Positions 20,421 to 27,371 of a stretch of DNA of 64,000 bases are shown here, piece after piece. Position 1 is the first letter of the stretch, and each line of letters opens with the position of its first letter. Origin of the DNA: Fontisphaera persica. Its GTDB lineage: Bacteria; Verrucomicrobiota; Verrucomicrobiia; Limisphaerales; Fontisphaeraceae. A program made the position numbers and the translations under genes. The stretch covers positions 2,542,001 through 2,606,000 of the forward strand of contig NZ_CP116615.1 of assembly GCF_024832785.1 (NCBI RefSeq), given 5' to 3'. The notes beneath the pieces were generated by a model. It was not told the origin of the DNA. It did no database searches and saw only the letters and a program-made list of their open reading frames with translations.

Positions 20421-20495
20421 GCCTCGGTAGCTCAATGGTAGAGCAGCGGACTCTTAATCCGTTGGTTCAAGGTTCAAGTCCTTGCCGGGGCACCA
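20421..20495 (+). tRNA. tRNA-Lys (anticodon CTT)
   Basis: 75 nt with the CCA end encoded. Acceptor GCCTCGG pairs with CCGGGGC (one T-G pair), the D arm is GCTC/GAGC, the anticodon arm is GCGGA-loop CTCTTAA-TCCGT with CTT at 20453-20455, and the T arm is CAAGG-TTCAAGT-CCTTG. It marks the left border of the repeat-rich accessory island. Confidence 0.95.
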
Positions 20496-20899
20496 TCCTC
20501 CACCCCGCGCGCACCCTGCCAGTCACATAGGCCCCACAGAGGGGCTATTCATGGGGGCGTCCTGAGCCGCCGCTTTTGTGTAAAAACAAGACTATCCAAT
20601 CATGCCACCTTGCCGCTTCACCTTTCACCCCTGCCACCTGTGGCATTGCTCCGCTGCATGTCCCGCCCTTTTTCGATTGGGCCAGCTTGGCCTTATGAAG
20701 TCGCCTCTTGTCCGCCAAATAGCATGCCCGAAGAAAGGCGTCCTGGGTTGAGGCACGCCGGCCGCTTTCTATGGTAGGACAACTCAACTTCACTCCGTCA
20801 GCCACCTGCTTTCTGGCTTCGCCCCCGCGCAGATTTTCCAGTCCCGTAGGGGCGACATGCCCCCCTCTCCCTCTGGGAGAGGGCCAGGGTGAGGGTCTG
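20496..20899. other. Gene-poor left border of the island
   Basis: No convincing gene. A short minus-strand frame covers 20545-20928, but its start lies inside the dispersed repeat and its composition resembles no protein I know. Near the right end there is a 'cctctgggagagggccagggtgagg' type repeat (about 20870-20897), which recurs at 21410-21440 and, inverted and diverged, near 26830-26855. Confidence 0.5.
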
Positions 20900-21287
20900 T
20901 AGCGCAGGCGTCCCGCCTGCGGGTTCACGGAGCCTCCCGGCTCCGTGATTGCAGAATTGCCGTCCTCAAAAAGACCCCCCTGTAAGCACCAATCCGCCCG
21001 TCATATTTTCCTGCATCGTAGCGCAGGCGTCGGCCCCATGTAGCGCAGGCGTCCTCGCCTGCGAGTTCACGGAGCCTCCCGGCTCCGTGATTGCAGAATT
21101 GCCGTCCTCAAAAAGACCCCCCTGTAAGCACCAATCCGCCCGTCATATTTTCCTGCATCGTAGCGCAGGCGTCGGCCCCATGTAGCGCAGGCGTCCCGCC
21201 TGCGGGTTCACGGAGCCTCCCGGCTCCGTGATTGCAGAATTGCCGTCCTCAAAAAGACCCCCCTGTAAGCACCAATCCGCCCGTCAT
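20900..21287. repeat. Three tandem copies of a 141/142-bp unit
   Basis: Units start at 20900, 21041 and 21183. Each begins tagcgcaggcgtc, continues through a G/C-rich palindrome, 'cggagcctcccggctccgtg' and 'gaattgccgtcctc', and ends near 'caatccgcccgtcat'. Units 1 and 2 are followed by the same 'attttcctgcatcgtagcgcaggcgtcggcccca' linker in shortened form; unit 2 has one extra base (tcctcgcc for tcccgcc), which explains the 142-base step. The copies are nearly identical, so the amplification is recent or kept uniform by conversion. Confidence 0.92.
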
Positions 21288-21521
21288 TCTTTGATTTGCC
21301 GTAATGTATGGCGTCCCGTCCCGCAGCGCGGGATAATGCCTGCGTCCCGCAGACCAAAGGGTGGCCAAGAGACCGCCGGCAGAATAATCCGACGCACGGT
21401 GACTATTTCCCTCTCCCTCTGGGAGAGGGCCAGGGTGAGGGGGCGTTTTCCCCCTTCGTTCCCTTCGTTTCCTTCTGTTCAAAATCCATGTCCATTCGTG
21501 TTCATTCGTGGTCTGTGTTTT

Positions 21522-22708
21522 AGGGAAAGCTGGGTAGATCATGACCCCGGTGGAGGGGTGGAGGCAAGTCGGGATGGTGGGGTTGGGAGAGGTTGAGGGG
21601 AGCCAGTGGATTAGGGCCCCGGCGAGGGCTGGGGCCTTGGCGTTGAGGATTTGGAGTGGGCTTTGCCATTCTTTGCCGCGGTTGGGGCGGACGAGGTTGA
21701 AGTACAGCCAGTAGGTGGTGATTTTGGCCCAAAAGTCTTGGGGGCTGGAGAAGGTTTCGCGGTCGAAGAATTCGTCTTCGACCAGGCGGTGGACGGTTTC
21801 GACGTCGCTTTGCCAGGTGTAGCGTTTGGGAGGGATGAAGCGGTGGTCGGAGCCGAGGGCGCGGACGGTGGCGGGGAGGCCTTGGTGGTGTTGGTTGACT
21901 TGGAATTCACTGCCGTTGTCGGTTTGCCAGACCAGGGTGGTGAGGTTGACGCCGTGGGCGGCGAGGTGGGCGGAGAGTTGTGTGGCCAGGAGGGTGGCGT
22001 AGGATTTGAGAGTTCGTCGGCGTAGCCGGTGAAGCAGGCGCCGGAGACTGGTTCGCGGACGGTGTATTGGAAGCGGGGAGGTGGAGGCGGTTCATTTGGG
22101 GCCAGTAATGGGGAATGTCCTGTAAATACTTGGTATCGGCGGAGAGTTGGGAGAAGAGTGGCCAGTTCCGTTTGAGGGCGCGGAGGAGTTTTTGGTGGCG
22201 GGTTTCTTTTGCGTGGGCGGAGGAGATGGTGTTGGCGGAGGACGCGGGCGATGGCGTTGTGGCTGCAGGGGAGGGCGAATTCGCGCTGGAGGCGTTCGGC
22301 GCCGAAGCCGGTTTGGTGGCGGAGTTTGACGATTTGGCCTTCGAGGCCGGAGGGGATACGGCGGGGGGAGCGTCGTGGGCGGCGGCTGTGTTCTTGGAGG
22401 GAGGAGGGCTTGCCGGGCACGTGGCGTCGGAGCCATTTACGGACGGTGTTGCGGGAACAGCCGAACTCGCGGACGGCGGCTTTGATGCCGTGGGTTTTGG
22501 CGAAGGCGACGAGTTTTTGTCGCAACCAATGGCGGTGGGTGCGCATACGGTACAATTCAAAGTAGGTGGTGTGCACGCCGGGAGGATAGCAGATGGGGCG
22601 CGCCGCTGCTGCACCTCCTCCGGAGGAGGTGCAGCAGCTCATCCTTGCGGCGTGCACTCAACACGTTGATCTTAACCACGGGGGTCATGATTCACCCAGT
22701 CTTTCCCA
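21522..22708 (-). mobile_element. Insertion sequence, DDE transposase type, 1187 bp, with 14-bp direct repeats
   Basis: The ends are inverted repeats: the left end reads AGGGAAAGCTGGGTAGATCA and continues TGACCCC; the right end read inward gives TGGGAAAGACTGGGTGAATC and continues ATGACCCC. Immediately outside both ends is the same 14-bp sequence GTGGTCTGTGTTTT (21508-21521 and 22709-22722), the form expected of a target-site duplication. Removing the element and one repeat rebuilds a left arm that matches the uninterrupted right arm near 26735-26760. The single transposase frame is broken (see the pseudogene entry), so this copy is not autonomous. Confidence 0.85.
21554..22546 (-). pseudogene. 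Transposase with retroviral-integrase-like DDE core, broken by three frameshifts
   Basis: The N-terminal part (from ATG 22546) has a helix-turn-helix: GIKAAVREFGCSRNTVRKWL, then TGFGAERLQREF and AIARVLRQHHLLRPRK. Near 22202-22212 the sense moves to another frame reading ALKRNWPLFSQLSADTKYLQ with DIPHYWPQM (first catalytic Asp in SADTKYL). Near 22074-22085, in a C/G run, it returns to the first frame (FQYTVREPVSGACFTGYADE). Near 22010-22018 it moves to the third frame: LKSYATLLATQLSAHL, WQTDNGSEFQV (second Asp), QSDVETVHRLVEDEFF (Glu) and YFNLVRPNRGKEW. No stop is met before the left IR. The core places it in the IS481/IS3-like rve superfamily; the exact family is uncertain. Confidence 0.82.
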
Positions 22709-22863
22709 GTGGTCTGTGTTTTCCATTTGACGCTCTCTGCCCCCTTTTCCCTCCACCCCATCGTCGTAGAGGGCCAAGGTGAGGGTCTGTAGCGCAGGCG
22801 TCCCGCCTGCGAGTTCACGGAGCCTCCCGGCTCCGTGATTTCTGAGTTGCCAAGGTCAAGCGG

Positions 22864-23356
22864 ACGCGCAGCGTCTGCGTCCCATCCCGCAAAGCGGAAG
22901 CGTCCCGCCGAAGTCAACTCCAACCCCGCTCTCGCCCTCTATTCCCACGCCCTAAATCAAGTCTTCATGGCTCCATCCTCTCGTCGCCGCCGTTGTCCCT
23001 CTAAGCGGCGGCAGCTACTGCGGCTAAAGAGTCATCCTCCTCGTCAGCCCGGTGACCGGCACGGCCAGCCCCAGCACCGGGCCTGCCTGTCGGCAGACAG
23101 GCGTCTTGCCTGAACCACCCCATTGACCCCGCGTCAAGAGCTATCGTCCACGACCACGCCCCAAAAACCGCGCCTTGTAACCTCCGCATGAACGGCATCC
23201 AGGCGTTTACAGCTCATCGCCTTGTCAGGTGGCGTCCCGCAAAGCAGCGCCTTTGTCACCGGCCACAGTCTGGCAGCAGGCGCAGCAGGCCAATCCACTC
23301 CGGCACGGCCTCAGTGCCGCATGATCCCTTACACCACTTGGCGGGACACCGGCGGG
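22864..23356. other. Non-coding stretch between left arm and immunity-like gene
   Basis: I see no supported gene here. Short open frames exist on both strands but none has a ribosome site with a recognisable product. The first 60 bases carry 'gcgtctgcgtcccatcccgc'-type dispersed repeat text. The remainder may be decayed Rhs-locus or toxin DNA. Confidence 0.45.
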
Positions 23357-23971
23357 TCAAGCCGCTGCCGCCAGTCGCTTTCTCACAGCTTCAATTGGCA
23401 ATCGCTTCGCAGGCAAAGCCCCCTTTCGTTCGAGCAACGCATCGTCGAGAGTTTTCAACGCGTTGGGCTTGTCACCTTGAACGAATTGAATCGCGGCCAA
23501 CACTGTGAGGCGTCCTTCCGGGCCAAGGCCAAACCAGTCCGCTGGAGTTGTGGATTCCACCTTGCGGCGAATCTCAGCTAGCCTGGAATGTTTCTCGACG
23601 AACGGAAGCGCGATGTCCGTGAGTTCGCGCGTTACCGTGTCCCGCAACTGCTCCAAGTCGTCTCTCGTATGGAACTGCCATTCGGCGAACCTCTTGTTCT
23701 CGCGCAGCAGGTGTAGCGGCGTCATCACGGTGGGAACAATCGGCTTGGCCTCCCCTTGGAGAAACGGTTCAAGGGACAGGAAGCGCAGCCCAACGTTACA
23801 ACCAAAGCAACCCGGCCCTCGTGGGTCGAGCCTGCACGGAAACGAGAACAGAGCGGCAGCTTCGTTGACTGGCCGCGTGTAAATCAAGCGCTCCACTCGT
23901 TGAAAGCCAAGCGCTGAAACAACGCCCTGCACAAAGCCGTCGAGGAGCTGTTTTGCCGATTCGAGCGTCAT
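23357..23971 (-). CDS. Candidate immunity protein (DUF4304-like), overlaps the upstream toxin gene
   Basis: 204 aa from ATG 23971, which overlaps the stop of the preceding gene as ATGA, a sign of translational coupling. The protein is soluble with no signal peptide. Its N-terminal half (KQLLDGFVQGVVSALGFQRV, then FSFPCRL, CNVGLRFLS) recalls DUF4304-like proteins, which occur as immunity proteins in polymorphic toxin loci; this match is by eye and weak. The C-terminal part has a helical segment (GRLTVLAAIQFVQGDKPNAL) reminiscent of a short repeat protein. Position directly after a toxin-like gene is the main argument for the role. Confidence 0.5.
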   Translation of the reverse strand: MTLESAKQLLDGFVQGVVSALGFQRVERLIYTRPVNEAAALFSFPCRLDPRGPGCFGCNVGLRFLSLEPFLQGEAKPIVPTVMTPLHLLRENKRFAEWQFHTRDDLEQLRDTVTRELTDIALPFVEKHSRLAEIRRKVESTTPADWFGLGPEGRLTVLAAIQFVQGDKPNALKTLDDALLERKGALPAKRLPIEAVRKRLAAAA

Positions 23972-24657
23972 GGGGCGGGTGCTGGCCACAGGATTTTGAT
24001 GGTGTTGTTGATGGTAATTCCCGACTGCTCTCCCACTGACGTAGCACCATAGGTGTTGATCCATCGGTCAGCCGAGAACTGTTGGCGGGCAGCCCGATCA
24101 AACCGATTAAAAGCGCCAACTGAAGATTTGATTTCTACGCCTCCAATCAGGCCCTTTTGCGGGTTTTCCAGGATGACGGCCATCCGGCGAGCGCCAAACG
24201 GTGTATTGAACGTCACCTCGCGCCCCCTTACCAACATTCCGTTCGCTTGCGCTTGGGCTATGAAATCGTCAACAGCACGAACGCCTGCGATGCGATTGGC
24301 ATTCGCTGTTCCCTTTGCGGCAAGGAATCCTGCCTCGGCAACCGGTGGGGCACGTGGAGCACCCGCAGTTTGGATGGTGGAAACCGGGCACACGTCATAG
24401 GCAGGGATTGTCGCCACTGTTCCGCCCGGATAGCTCAACGCTTGCGTCGTAGCGGGCGGAAACTCCGGGTCGTAAACCATGCACGACCAGCAACAGTCAT
24501 CGTAGACAACTTTGGCGTTTACGGCCCGGCACTGCTCCCAGGCTGCGCTGGGCGGCATTCCTTGGTCCGGGACGCTGGACAGGGCAGGCAAAGCAAAGCC
24601 CAGCGTCTGGCTCAGGAGCCAGAGCGCCAACCATATCGTCTGCCTATGCCTTCTCAT
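23968..24657 (-). CDS. Small secreted toxin candidate with E-x-K nuclease-like motif
   Basis: 229 aa from ATG 24657, chosen because GAAAGGA lies at the right distance and a clear Sec signal follows (IWLALWLLSQTLGFALPALS). After a cysteine-containing linker (YDDCCWSCMVYDP) and a Pro/Ala-rich stretch, the C-terminal 110 residues form a compact domain: VDDFIAQAQANGMLVRGREV, FGARRMAVILENP, GGVEIKSSVG and FDRAARQQFSADRWINTYGA. The E-x-K in VEIKSS with the preceding strand is the kind of core seen in PD-(D/E)xK nuclease toxins. I do not recognise the family as a whole. It sits between a two-TM protein and the immunity candidate. Confidence 0.55.
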   Translation of the reverse strand: MRRHRQTIWLALWLLSQTLGFALPALSSVPDQGMPPSAAWEQCRAVNAKVVYDDCCWSCMVYDPEFPPATTQALSYPGGTVATIPAYDVCPVSTIQTAGAPRAPPVAEAGFLAAKGTANANRIAGVRAVDDFIAQAQANGMLVRGREVTFNTPFGARRMAVILENPQKGLIGGVEIKSSVGAFNRFDRAARQQFSADRWINTYGATSVGEQSGITINNTIKILWPAPAP

Positions 24658-24751
24658 TCTCATCCTTTCAAGCGCCGGTGGCCGACCTTCCTCCGGCGCG
24701 GCCTGAGCGGTGCAAAATTCTTTCACACCTCTTGGCGGGACAGCCGCGTTG

Positions 24752-25105
24752 CTATTCTCCGCCACGCTCTTTCAGACCACGAAGCCCGAGCGATTTCAAC
24801 AGCAGGGTTACGCCGAAATAGCCACACAACGCCAGCACTGCGCCGACCACTGCAAAGAAGATCAGCAGGAAGGCAGCGTAGGCGAAACTGGAATCGGACG
24901 GCGCTAGTGTTCTGTGTGAAGGATCAATCAGTCCGGCGAAAAACCGGCCAGTTTGTTCCACGCCGCCCAAGCCACTTTCCATGCAGCGACGGATAGGAGA
25001 TGTGGCCGGCAAAGCACCGAGCACCCAAGGAGCAAACCAATCAACCGCAGCTCCAGCCACCGCTCCAGCAGCGGCAATGAGCAGGATTTTTGAGGGCGTT
25101 TTCAT
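24752..25105 (-). CDS. Small two-TM membrane protein, possible immunity protein of the Rhs tip
   Basis: 117 aa from ATG 25105; a GTG at 25153 in the same frame would overlap the Rhs stop codon. The first hydrophobic segment is ILLIAAAGAVAGAAVDWFAP (TM or signal anchor) and the second is FLLIFFAVVGAVLALCGYFG near the C-terminus, with a soluble loop of about 50 residues between. No family recognised. Its place directly downstream of the Rhs C-terminal tip is where cognate immunity genes usually lie, and membrane immunity proteins are known for toxins that attack membranes. Confidence 0.55.
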   Translation of the reverse strand: MKTPSKILLIAAAGAVAGAAVDWFAPWVLGALPATSPIRRCMESGLGGVEQTGRFFAGLIDPSHRTLAPSDSSFAYAAFLLIFFAVVGAVLALCGYFGVTLLLKSLGLRGLKERGGE

Positions 25106-25142
25106 GTTTGAACGAGGGGCGAGTTGCGTCTGAGCACTCGGC

Positions 25143-26360
25143 TCATTCGACACCGTAGTATTTCTTGCACTTGCAGCCGCCGTTTGCCCGAACGTATTCG
25201 CGGAATTCGTTCAACGCTGAACTGCTCATTGAGTGGGTTAGCTGATAGCGTTTGTGGCCGCGTTCGTAATCCACCCAATCGCGAATATTCCCGCTCTTGT
25301 CAGCCACAAAGTGCAGAACCGAAAGCGTGGCACGTCCGTCAGGCGACCCCTTTGCGTCCAAGTCTGGGTCATCAGGAAAACCAGTCGTTCCTTTTGCCGG
25401 ACTCATGGCGTTGTGAACGTCCTTTAGACTGCTAAAGCTGCCAAGGAGACGTTTGTTGTGGTCGCCATGTGCCACCCAGTCCTGGTAAGGATGCAGTCCT
25501 GTTCCGAGTTGCTTCGCGGCTGCGCTCGGGTCGTCGTTTCCCTTGGACGTCGTGCAAAGGTCTTTCGCCTTCTGAAGGTGCTCTTTGTATTTTGTCTTCC
25601 GCGTGTCCTCGCTGCCACCCATGCTGAGGCTGCGGTCAAAGTGATACTGCGTGCCTGGCTCGGTGATGTAGGAAGTTGAGCCAAATTTCTCGTCAACGGC
25701 CTCGTCGGCATCAGCAACCGCTTGGGCGGCATCGGCTGGGTAGCCAGCTTTCAAGGCCCACCGCCGTGTGGCGTCCCGGTGAATCCTTGTATCCCACAAA
25801 CCAAGGTAGTCGTTGCCTCCAATTGGTTCGTTGCCCAGAAACGAGTAGCAGTTCATTCCGCCCATTTCTCCCATTGGGTCTCTACTTGGCCACCTGCCAG
25901 TGTGGGGATGGTAGTAACGGTGGCCGTAATAGTACAGGCCGGTTTCCCAGTCGTAGTATTTGGTGGAGAAGAGATGATGGAAGGTCTGGGCCAGGGGGCC
26001 GGTCGCGCGGAGGAGCTCGCCAAACGGGCCGTATTCGTATTGGGCAATCCATTGCTCTGTGGCCGCATTCGACGTGTGGAGGAATAATTTCCCTTCGGCG
26101 GGACGCCGAAGGGCACACGCCGGAGGCGTGTGCTCCCCGAGACCAATAACATCCGCCCACCCCCTATGAAAACCCCATGAAGCCGAAGCCGCCCCGTTCA
26201 GTGTTTCCGACAAATCCACTCCCCACACATGCGTGCGCACCGCACCCATTGTCCCATGCACTGCGGGACAATTCCCCTCTTCGACGATTGCCCACGCGCC
26301 TATGGCTTCATTCACCTGCATCTTGTGGCTGACCTCGAACCCAATATCCCCCAAAACCAC
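25143..26360 (-). CDS. Truncated Rhs core protein with C-terminal toxin-like tip
   Basis: 405 aa from GTG 26360 with GAAGGGGAG just upstream; Rhs proteins are normally above 1000 aa, so the barrel-forming repeats are missing. Residues 41-57 (VRTHVWGVDLSETLNGA) and 107-188 (YEYGPFGELL, YYDWETGLYYYGHRYYHPHT, GRWPSRDPMGEMGG, NEPIGGNDYLGL) are the Rhs-associated core. Residues 58-96 are encoded by an inserted palindromic repeat. The tip (189-405) is the variable toxin part: HFDRS near 240, then LHPYQDWVAHGDH (His290, Gln293, Asp294, His298), similar to the His-x3-Gln-Asp-x3-His pattern of zinc phospholipase C/S1-P1 nuclease folds, and a Cys-rich end. It may be an orphan module instead of a full effector. 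Confidence 0.7.
   Translation of the reverse strand: MVLGDIGFEVSHKMQVNEAIGAWAIVEEGNCPAVHGTMGAVRTHVWGVDLSETLNGAASASWGFHRGWADVIGLGEHTPPACALRRPAEGKLFLHTSNAATEQWIAQYEYGPFGELLRATGPLAQTFHHLFSTKYYDWETGLYYYGHRYYHPHTGRWPSRDPMGEMGGMNCYSFLGNEPIGGNDYLGLWDTRIHRDATRRWALKAGYPADAAQAVADADEAVDEKFGSTSYITEPGTQYHFDRSLSMGGSEDTRKTKYKEHLQKAKDLCTTSKGNDDPSAAAKQLGTGLHPYQDWVAHGDHNKRLLGSFSSLKDVHNAMSPAKGTTGFPDDPDLDAKGSPDGRATLSVLHFVADKSGNIRDWVDYERGHKRYQLTHSMSSSALNEFREYVRANGGCKCKKYYGVE
26078..26177 (-). repeat. Palindromic dispersed repeat inserted in frame in the rhs gene
   Basis: About 100 bp holding two adjacent perfect hairpins, cccttcggc-gggac-gccgaaggg (26091-26113) and cacacgcc-gga-ggcgtgtg (26114-26132). In the rhs frame it encodes SWGFHRGWADVIGLGEHTPP and ACALRRPAEG, which breaks the expected Rhs sequence after SETLNGA. 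The text resembles GC-rich dispersed repeats that I recall from verrucomicrobial genomes, but that recollection is unverified. Confidence 0.6.
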
Positions 26361-26580
26361 CTCCCCTTCAAGCCCTCATTCGCCCCCAAATCGGCTTTTG
26401 GCTTGCCTCACCTAGGCCATAGGGGCGGTTTCGTAGCGCAAGGCGTACCCCATGTAGCGTAGGCGTCCTCGCCTGCGGGTGATACCTGCGTCCCGCAGGC
26501 CAATTCCCACCTTGCGATTCATGCACGCCTGCGTTACGGCGCATGAAAGATTAACGCACGGTTTGTTGTTTCCGAACGGG
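26361..26580. other. Upstream region of the rhs fragment
   Basis: No gene seen. It contains another tagcgtaggcgtcctcgcctgcgggtg repeat piece at about 26454-26480 and 'acctgcgtcccgcaggc' at about 26483-26500. No missing N-terminal Rhs coding sequence can be found here, so the truncation is sharp. Confidence 0.45.
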
Positions 26581-27140
26581 TCCGCTTGACCTTATCAGTT
26601 CTGCAATCACGGAGCCGGGAGGCTCCGTGAACCCGCAGGCGGGACGCCTGCGCTACGGGGAGACGCCTGCGCTACAGACCCTCACCTTGGCTTTCTGCTA
26701 CGATGGGGTGGAGGGAAAAGGGGGCAGAGCGCGTGAAGGGGGGAGATTAACCACGAATGAACACGAATGGACACAAATTTTGAACAGAAGGAAACGAAGG
26801 GAACGAAGAGGGAGAAGAGGCCCCTATCCCTAGCTCTCTCCCGGGGGAGAGGGGAACTGTTAATGGGCGTTGTGGGATTTTCGCCCGCTTTTGCTGGCTG
26901 CAGGCCAAGATGAAGTTGAGGGAACGGTAGCCGCAGAAAAATAATTATTCATCCCTTGTCCTTGGCCTGCGAGTTTCAAGCCGAATACCGCCCCACGGGA
27001 CGGGACGCCATACGTTATGGCTAATGCGAGATTGAGGTACGGATTGGTGCGTCCAGAGGCGTGTGTTTGACGACGGCAATTTTGCAATCACGGAGCCGGG
27101 AGGCTCCGTGAACCCGCAGGTGGGACGCCTGCGCTACATC
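26581..27140 (-). repeat. Right arm of the large imperfect inverted repeat
   Basis: Contains, in reverse complement and mirrored order, the modules of the left arm: tccgcttgacctt (26581), tagcgcagg block (26601-26655), 'gtggagggaaaagggggcag' (about 26710-26730), the 'aaccacgaatgaacacgaat' and 'gaacagaaggaaacgaaggg' block (26747-26810), a ctctcccgggggagagg block (about 26832-26850), and 'gggacgggacgccatac' to 'ggtgggacgcctgcgctac' (26990-27137). No gene is supported within it. A stretch at 26856-26985 has no left-arm counterpart that I can see. Confidence 0.78.
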
Positions 27141-27296
27141 GGGGACGCGTGCGCTACTTGACGCCCAGTAAGACCTTCACCCCCTGTGTCTTCGCGCCCT
27201 TGCGTCTTGGCGTTAATTAAAACCAAAAACTTCATCCCGCGCACCTGGTTCAACCCCCTTTTGCCCCTTGTTATTGGGGTTTTCGCGAAAAAAAGA

Positions 27297-27371
27297 TGGT
27301 GCGCGCTGGAGGACTTGAACCTCCGACCTCTTCCGTGTGAAGGAAGCGCTCTTCCACTAAGCTAAGCGCGC
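27297..27371 (-). tRNA. tRNA-Val (anticodon CAC)
   Basis: 75 nt with ACCA encoded. On the minus strand: acceptor GCGCGCT with AGCGCGC, D arm GC..GC region GCTTAGTGGAAGAGC, anticodon arm CTTCC-loop TTCACAC-GGAAG with CAC at 27339-27337, T arm GGAGG-TTCAAGT-CCTCC. It closes the right side of the accessory island. Confidence 0.95.

What the first reader, a model, noticed from the sequence alone, without database searches (positions are those of the whole stretch)
22864..26580. Four-gene toxin/immunity cassette enclosed by an inverted repeat between two tRNA genes
Directly seen: a minus-strand run of a truncated Rhs core with variable tip, a two-TM protein, a small signal-peptide protein with an E-x-K motif, and a protein overlapping it by ATGA, bounded on both sides by inverted repeat arms and then by tRNA-Lys and tRNA-Val. 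Known: polymorphic toxin loci hold tip, immunity, orphan toxin, immunity in this order. Inference: two toxin/immunity pairs on a moveable or recombining island.
Basis: partly seen in the sequence, partly recalled or inferred. Interest (0 to 1): 0.72.

Follow-up and report, generated by a model that had tools for sequence, protein, structure and literature searches.

The report
Swappable toxin cassette, phospholipase-like tip
In a bacterium of the Verrucomicrobia group, one of many swappable toxin gene cassettes carries an enzyme tip predicted to be shaped like phospholipase C, placed so that cutting it free from its carrier could also switch it on.

Summary
The four minus-strand genes, the inverted repeat and both tRNAs are real. 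The repeat is not private to the cassette: the arm has 66 places in this genome, faces inward in 9 of 9 mixed clusters examined (7 without any Rhs fragment between), and its core recurs in 11 of 38 other genomes searched.

The locus belongs to a dispersed Rhs cassette family with conserved ends. The 5' module is 81-95% identical to 7 of 13 other cassettes; the 3' module recurs at 6 places; the middle has no second copy in the stretches compared.

Pair 1 is a well-supported toxin candidate. The tip has sparse relatives on Rhs proteins in about five phyla, a zinc-ligand-like pattern, and a predicted fold closest to zinc phospholipase C and S1/P1 nuclease. A membrane or exported protein follows in 17 of 17 relatives by eye. 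In 15 of 15 tips read, Trp stands at the Rhs self-cleavage point, like the N-terminal Trp that binds zinc in S1 nuclease, so release may also activate: inferred, not shown. The window's Rhs is truncated and may be a silent donor.

Pair 2 has no recognisable family. The tRNA-Lys to tRNA-Val interval differs in the one sister species held.

The parts
20421..20495 (+). tRNA-Lys (CTT); DNA similarity to same-genus genome G001 from the left stops exactly at its 3' end
20860..21521 (+). cluster of the interspersed repeat (three further plus-oriented arm copies)
22709..23356 (.). 3' module of the cassette, including the left repeat arm 22727-22868; parts of it (244-491 bp, 82-92%) recur at 6 other places, each downstream of a Rhs fragment in the same relative orientation; only two of the six (L051, L056) include arm sequence
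23357..23971 (-). 204-aa protein, candidate immunity partner of pair 2; no relative with a convincing score
23968..24657 (-). 229-aa protein with signal-peptide-like start and GVEIKSS; candidate orphan toxin, family unknown
24752..25105 (-). 117-aa two-TM protein (133 aa from GTG at 25153), probable immunity partner of the tip
25143..25796 (-). Rhs tip toxin domain (217 aa, starts with Trp), Zn-PLC/S1-P1/HET-C-like
25797..26360 (-). truncated Rhs core (188 aa) with two Asp 23 residues apart and PIGGNDYLGL just before the tip
26361..26576 (-). leader between the right arm and the Rhs ORF, shared with other cassettes
26577..26737 (-). right repeat arm, part of the shared 5' module
27297..27371 (-). 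tRNA-Val (CAC); DNA similarity to G001 from the right stops at 27291, beside its 3' end

Best explanation
This is an orphan Rhs tip cassette, one of a dispersed and partly tandem family in the genome, with a conserved 5' module (repeat arm, leader, start of the Rhs core), a variable payload and a conserved 3' module. The conserved ends let payloads be exchanged by homologous recombination (inferred). Its first payload is a tip of the zinc phospholipase C / S1-P1 nuclease / HET-C superfamily with a two-TM membrane protein as probable antidote. When the tip sits on a full-length Rhs protein, self-cleavage after ...D-x-x-G-L would release a domain beginning with Trp1. By analogy with S1 nuclease, where the N-terminal Trp main chain binds the zinc cluster, that new N-terminus would complete the metal site, so the toxin would be inactive inside the Rhs shell and switched on by release. 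It would then attack phospholipid (favoured, since partners are membrane or exported proteins) or nucleic acid. The second pair is probably another toxin/immunity unit of unknown type.
For: Rhs core. Tip relatives sparse: 6 of 386 other genomes of the phylum and 13 loci on 12 contigs in the named collection, about five phyla. All 12 ORFs read with their 5' end (11 distinct, L110 repeats L109) follow a Rhs core end, by eye. Trp at +1 in 15 of 15 distinct tips with a readable 5' end against 4 of 18 Rhs control tips. His at position 6 in 14 of 15; HxxxDxxxH in all 13 rows of A2 and in two further tips. AF2 model pLDDT 80.3, pTM 0.84. VIA-align: the first 14 rows are 13 Zn-PLC entries (Z 9.4-11.5) and one S1/P1-type nuclease (Z 8.1), next row Z 3.7; model residue 1 aligns to chain residue 1 in the 13 PLC rows. 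Downstream gene membrane or exported in 17 of 17 by eye; by an automatic rule 14 of 15, controls 8 of 16. Conserved ends. N-terminal Trp as zinc ligand: PMC5201275 passages. Rhs self-cleavage, with the toxin starting five residues after the catalytic Asp (D1338, A1343): PMC8636562 passages; also PMC8765631 passages. In the window Trp is at that +5 place.
Against: Foldseek alone is not significant (best E 0.47). The window tip itself reaches no Pfam family below E 0.1 (best 0.24); only relatives do, weakly. Trp at +1 is not rare in Rhs tips generally (4 of 18; 5 of 12 in the own genome, the window tip and three copies of one other tip included), and the 15 tips are related, so they are not independent events. 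The residue before Trp is the usual Leu in 9 of 15 only; the others have Met, Tyr, Arg, Glu, His and His, so cleavage there is less sure. The window's Rhs lacks a shell, so self-cleavage there is doubtful; no full-length Rhs carrier was found in this genome (longest open frame with this core 467 aa; 5 RHS-repeat hits). The window's two-TM protein has no detectable sequence similarity to the partners of its relatives. The automatic rule misses the partner of L100. One tip (L139) lacks His at position 6.
Confidence: 0.6

Rival explanations
1. A mobile element (transposon or tRNA-borne island) whose terminal inverted repeats are the 142-bp arms and whose cargo is the four genes.
For: Arms bracket the genes. 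Similarity to G001 ends at the 3' ends of tRNA-Lys and tRNA-Val, and in G001 an integrase-like gene (PF00589 E 6.9e-5, 23.1 bits, below its cut-off of 27.1) and a DnaB-like helicase lie beside tRNA-Val, so the interval is a variable site and probably an insertion site.
Against: 66 places for the arm in the genome, many in clusters with no Rhs fragment between them; no transposase among the four cassette ORFs; the one transposase-like ORF found (IS481-like, incomplete match) lies outside the arms; no second copy of the tRNA-Val end beyond 13 bp in the window.
Confidence: 0.15
2. A decaying graveyard cassette: Rhs fragments and repeats multiplied by homologous recombination, with no function today.
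For: Truncated Rhs core; many broken Rhs frames in the 2081-2125 kb array; no full-length Rhs carrier found; cassette genes differ in third-position GC (0.56-0.68) from the four neighbouring genes measured (0.74-0.84).
Against: All four ORFs are open, and the tip has the residues that are invariant or nearly so in its 12 aligned relatives.
Confidence: 0.25
3. The tip is a nuclease (S1/P1-like) acting in the target's cytoplasm, not a phospholipase.
For: The fold is shared by both activities; SmNuc1 nuclease is among the VIA-align rows (Z 8.1); Zhang et al. 2012 left both activities open for Tox-HET-C.
Against: Closest rows are phospholipases (Z 9.4-11.5); partner genes are membrane or exported proteins, which suits action at the envelope.
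Confidence: 0.3

Closest known systems
Rhs polymorphic toxins and orphan Rhs tip cassettes
   Same: Rhs core domain, variable tip at the self-cleavage motif, small gene just downstream, multiple truncated tip cassettes in one genome
   Different: Cassettes here share repeat-bearing 5' modules and recurring 3' modules around the payload; no full-length carrier was found in this genome
Tox-HET-C (Zhang et al. 2012, PMC3482391, passages read)
   Same: H, acidic, H-x-D and HxxxDxxxH in order (H-x-D in 6 of 13 aligned tips, the window's included); predicted kin of phospholipase C and S1-P1 nuclease; 3 of 13 tips match Pfam Het-C weakly
   Different: Listed there with a PVC metallopeptidase and no immunity partner; here on Rhs with a membrane partner; the Nxx[DE] element is not conserved
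YdjM phospholipase toxin domain (PMC8557891, passages read)
   Same: Predicted alpha-toxin-like domain, reported there as C-terminal module of several RHS-type toxins
   Different: No YdjM family was among the Pfam matches and no direct comparison was made; that main text holds no 'zinc', and its 'tryptophan' passages concern biosynthesis
Zinc-dependent phospholipases C (Bacillus PC-PLC, Listeria broad-range PLC, clostridial alpha-toxin N-domain)
   Same: Predicted fold; the tip's Trp1 aligns to residue 1 of the mature chains; His/Asp order (recalled for these enzymes)
   Different: 10-15% identity; those are secreted enzymes, here the mature N-terminus would come from Rhs self-cleavage

Membership tests
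Rhs polymorphic toxin | Rhs-associated core domain | tested here: met
   TIGR03696 E 2.8e-19, 69.4 bits, cut-off 32.5
Rhs polymorphic toxin | PxxxxDPxGL self-cleavage motif and two Asp | tested here: inconclusive
   PIGGNDYLGL has Y in place of the second P; Asp pair 23 residues apart, read by eye (motif); cleavage untested
Rhs polymorphic toxin | full Rhs shell and secretion head | tested here: not met
   ORF 405 aa only; so filed as an orphan Rhs tip cassette, not as a complete Rhs toxin
Rhs polymorphic toxin | cognate immunity protein next to the tip | tested here: inconclusive
   two-TM ORF overlapping or directly following; position and topology only
Zn-PLC / S1-P1 / HET-C superfamily | fold | tested here: met
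   predicted model only: VIA-align first 14 rows, Z 8.1-11.5, next 3.7; Foldseek alone not significant
Zn-PLC / S1-P1 / HET-C superfamily | ordered zinc ligands Trp1, His, Asp, His, HxxxDxxxH | tested here: met
   equivalence to known ligands by order, not by coordinates; metal binding untested
Zn_dep_PLPC (PF00882) | match to the Pfam model at its curated cut-off | tested here: not met
   window tip has no match at E <= 0.1; relatives match weakly: 5 of 13, best 0.0095, and 3 of 5 in A1 at E <= 5, best 0.00034; so not filed as a PF00882 member
Tox-HET-C | Nxx[DE] element of the published signature | tested here: inconclusive
   signature; NIRD occurs once in the window tip but is not conserved in A2 (by eye)
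Zn-PLC / S1-P1 / HET-C superfamily | phosphodiesterase activity | not testable with these tools
   no assay
Transposon with terminal inverted repeats | repeats confined to the ends of the element | tested here: not met
   66 places in own genome, core in 11 of 38 other genomes
Transposon with terminal inverted repeats | transposase between the ends | tested here: not met
   none among the four cassette ORFs; smaller ORFs not scanned
Transposon with terminal inverted repeats | target-site duplication | not tested
   -
tRNA-borne genomic island | synteny break at the tRNA 3' end | tested here: met
   20495 and 27291 against G001; one relative only
tRNA-borne genomic island | integrase and attachment repeat in the window | tested here: not met
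   no integrase among the ORFs scanned; longest outside match to tRNA-Val 13 bp, in tRNA-Lys; an integrase-like gene is present at this site in G001

The most novel reading that the evidence does not exclude
A family of Rhs tips, spread over about five phyla, in which the cut that frees the toxin also makes its catalytic site: the Trp exposed by Rhs self-cleavage is itself a zinc ligand, so the toxin is a true zymogen inside the shell, while the membrane antidote covers the released form.
Probability: 0.4. Interest if true: 0.72.

Novelty: new variant of a known kind. Interest (0 to 1): 0.5.

Why it matters
It gives a sharp, testable idea of why this enzyme fold suits Rhs delivery: enzymes of this fold use a free N-terminal Trp, and the Rhs protein would make one by cutting itself. 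It also shows, in one genome, a family of toxin cassettes with conserved ends and variable middles, a concrete substrate for payload exchange in a poorly studied phylum.

Tried and rejected
The arms as ends of a private transposon: rejected. Pfam, NCBIfam, PHROGs and PADLOC for the four proteins gave nothing usable beyond the Rhs core; a weak PrsW hit for protein 4 (E 0.0057, below its cut-off) is taken as chance. Solved-structure search with the tip profile gave only coiled-coil chance hits, and with protein 3 only ribosomal S6 at E 0.14 or worse. Protein 3: phylum search, 3 of 386 other genomes with weak partial matches, E 0.002-0.007; relatives, 3 of 38 other genomes, of which G036 matches residues 48-116 at E 5e-13 and the leader at E 0.009 in short ORFs, so only its N-terminal part recurs; viral contigs nothing, plasmids nothing below E 0.3. 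Protein 4: 2 of 292 other genomes with weak matches. The structure model of the protein 3 C-terminal part failed and was not searched. The two-TM proteins as one sequence family: only L098, L102 and L105 clearly form one; L100 and L101 match each other weakly and were scored in profiles they had been added to; the window protein did not join. The window two-TM protein was not searched genome-wide. Neighbour-gene orientation as the cause of the inward-facing repeats: the left side fits in most clusters, the right side does not, so left unexplained. Rfam: only the two tRNAs. Papers: PMC3482391, PMC8636562, PMC8765631, PMC6838775, PMC8557891 and PMC5201275 were read as passages only; the rest as search listings. 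That activation by self-cleavage through an N-terminal Trp is not in print rests in one open-access library.
Full report
What is there. The window is 2542001-2606000 of a single-contig 4.73-Mb genome. The four ORFs, the ATGA overlap, the inverted repeat and the two tRNAs are as described. The Rhs ORF holds a core domain above its curated cut-off but is only 405 aa.

The repeat. The arm finds 66 places in the genome (lower bound) and, through matches of roughly 25-60 bp to its core, 11 of 38 other genomes searched; the one same-genus genome has none. Within clusters plus copies always precede minus copies: 9 plus-to-minus neighbours, 0 minus-to-plus (window and 18 of the stretches fetched; L053 and L054 not included; matches under 46 bp dropped; clusters cut at 4.5-kb gaps). 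Of these 9 mixed clusters two (window, L055) hold a Rhs fragment between the arms; seven do not (L056 at 2873684-2875194, L057, L062, L065, L066, L067, L068). The inverted geometry is therefore a property of the repeat family, not of this cassette.

The cassette family. The Rhs part has 56 matches in the genome, many in an array at 2081-2125 kb. I aligned the 14 Rhs fragments whose match starts at residue 1-3: 7 of the 13 others match the window continuously for 417-571 bp at 81-95% identity, four of them across the whole arm, leader and ORF start, three from the inner half of the arm; one (L058) matches in two parts; five only around the ORF start. On the other side parts of window 22709-23356 match six places over 244-491 bp at 82-92%, each downstream of a Rhs fragment in the same relative orientation (read); two of the six include arm sequence. 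Between 23357 and about 25821 no stretch of 130 bp or more matches the 22 own-genome stretches compared. Protein searches of the whole own genome with the tip and proteins 3 and 4 found only the window at their thresholds, though a profile later found a remote second tip (below); the two-TM protein was not searched genome-wide. Conserved ends with a variable middle are what exchange by homologous recombination would give; the exchange itself is inferred.

The site. Against same-genus genome G001 the left flank is colinear up to 20495, the last base of tRNA-Lys, and the right flank from 27291, beside the 3' end of tRNA-Val. G001 has, past tRNA-Lys, a 960-aa ORF with no DNA match to the window and two Rhs cassettes, and, past tRNA-Val on another contig, an integrase-like gene (below its Pfam cut-off) and a DnaB-like helicase. 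The two contigs are not joined, so whether they meet is unknown. One relative only.

The tip. Relatives occur in 6 of 386 other genomes of the phylum and at 13 loci on 12 named contigs from Phycisphaerae, Verrucomicrobia/Lentisphaerae, Omnitrophota, Treponema and Bacillota/Clostridia; some are the same records in both. The Treponema and Bacillota ones are remote (25-30% identity). A profile of 13 rows finds a second such tip in the own genome (L056, E 6.9e-7) and one in G001 (L139, E 1.5e-6), the latter in a cassette past tRNA-Lys. Invariant in the 13 rows: H52, F53, D64, R66, G98, L101, H102, Q105, D106, A109, H110; near-invariant W1, H6, T10, D35, A77, L97, D142, D147, F198. H-x-D at 52-54 holds in 6 of 13. 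Pfam matches of members are weak but nearly all point to one superfamily: DUF6765 6 of 13, VWA7_N 6, Zn_dep_PLPC 5, Het-C 3 at E <= 0.1, with one unrelated hit and none for the window tip; that DUF6765 and VWA7_N belong with this superfamily is recalled. The AF2 model (pLDDT 80.3, pTM 0.84) gives Foldseek E no better than 0.47, although its first seven rows are phospholipases C. VIA-align on the same candidates puts 13 Zn-phospholipase C entries (Z 9.4-11.5) and one S1/P1-type nuclease (Z 8.1) on top, then falls to 3.7, and pairs model residue 1 with chain residue 1 in the phospholipase rows. The tool warns that Z under about 13 can be chance for helical bundles; the gap below the family and the ligand pattern are why I accept it.

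Trp at the cut. In S1 nuclease the mature chain starts with Trp and its N-terminal main chain binds the zinc cluster (PMC5201275, passages). Rhs toxins cut themselves after a PxxxxDPxG(L/W/F) motif (PMC8636562, PMC8765631, passages); in the first paper the catalytic Asp is 1338 and the toxin starts at 1343, that is, at Asp+5. In 15 of 15 distinct tips with a readable 5' end Trp is at that +5 place (window, L094, L099, L100, L101, L102, L103, L104, L106, L107, L108, L109, L111, L056, L139). The residue just before it is Leu in 9; Met, Tyr, Arg, Glu, His and His in the other 6, so the motif is not canonical there. Dropped: L097, L098 and L105 (5' end not held or broken), L110 (copy of L109), L093, L095 and L096 (same records as L100, L104, L106). 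Control: among 30 Rhs loci of the phylum 18 tips could be called and 4 start with Trp (12 loci gave no call); in the own genome 5 of 12, the window tip and three copies of one other tip included. Fisher p is 6e-6 (15 of 15 against 4 of 18), but the 15 are related, so it measures conservation rather than independent events.

The partner. In the window a two-TM ORF overlaps or follows the tip. Among tips with a readable next gene it is a membrane or exported protein in 17 of 17 by my reading (window, L056, L094, L097-L102, L104-L109, L111, L139; L103 has no downstream sequence). An automatic rule (longest next ORF, hydrophobic 19-residue segment) gives 14 of 15, missing L100 where a longer wrong-frame ORF was chosen; L056 and L105 were not put through it. 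Controls by the same rule: 8 of 16, 9 with a lipoprotein seen by eye; p 0.015 for 14 of 15 against 8 of 16, and 0.007 for 16 of 16 against 9 of 16 by eye before L105 was added. By sequence only L098, L102 and L105 are clearly one family, and the window protein does not join. So partnership rests on position and topology.

Function of this copy. The Rhs fragment lacks the shell, and no full-length Rhs with this core was found here (longest open frame with a match 467 aa). It may be a silent donor. All four ORFs are open; third-position GC (0.56-0.68) is lower than in the four neighbours measured (0.74-0.84), as expected for imported payload.

Pair 2. Neither protein has a recognisable family; only the N-terminal part of protein 3 recurs (G036).

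Known and new. Tox-HET-C (PMC3482391) and YdjM (PMC8557891) were already predicted to be phospholipase- or nuclease-like toxin domains, the latter reported on Rhs proteins. I made no direct sequence comparison beyond Pfam, so this tip may belong to the wider reach of either. What I did not find in the passages and searches named is the link between Rhs self-cleavage and a zinc-binding N-terminal Trp, or a membrane partner for such tips.

Noticed in passing
own genome, clusters listed (window 20878-27138 is one): Repeat arms within a cluster always face inward: 9 plus-to-minus neighbours and 0 minus-to-plus, with or without a Rhs fragment between. Cause unexplained.
   Followed up: partly
G000:C1 around 1740186 (L140, L175): An open frame of 10,034 aa with one RHS repeat hit above cut-off; the 19-kb stretch fetched is open throughout.
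   Followed up: partly
G000:C1:2080000-2125000 (L052-L054): Tandem array of Rhs core fragments, all matches on the minus strand, many with broken frames; at three places a 3' module abuts the next 5' arm.
   Followed up: partly
L089:2157-6264 (G001): Integrase-like gene and DnaB-like helicase beside tRNA-Val in the sister species: the tRNA-Val 3' end looks like an integration site.
   Followed up: partly
G155:C1:482000-595000: Another genome of the phylum has 29 of its 36 listed Rhs core matches in this stretch, mostly short frames: a larger orphan-tip array.
   Followed up: no
L102:1903-2757: A relative of the tip sits behind only 65 residues that look like a signal peptide plus the last bit of a Rhs core, hinting that truncated forms may be exported by the general pathway.
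   Followed up: no
window 21611-22657 minus: IS481-like transposase remnant (partial match, 69.7 bits against a cut-off of 224) just outside the left arm.
   Followed up: no
window 26093-26140: A palindromic GC-rich stretch inside the Rhs core ORF looks like a small repeat read in frame.
   Followed up: no
L116 and L119 (genome G036): The signal-peptide leader and residues 48-116 of protein 3 recur in short separate ORFs of another genome of the order, so the leader may be a shared module.
   Followed up: partly
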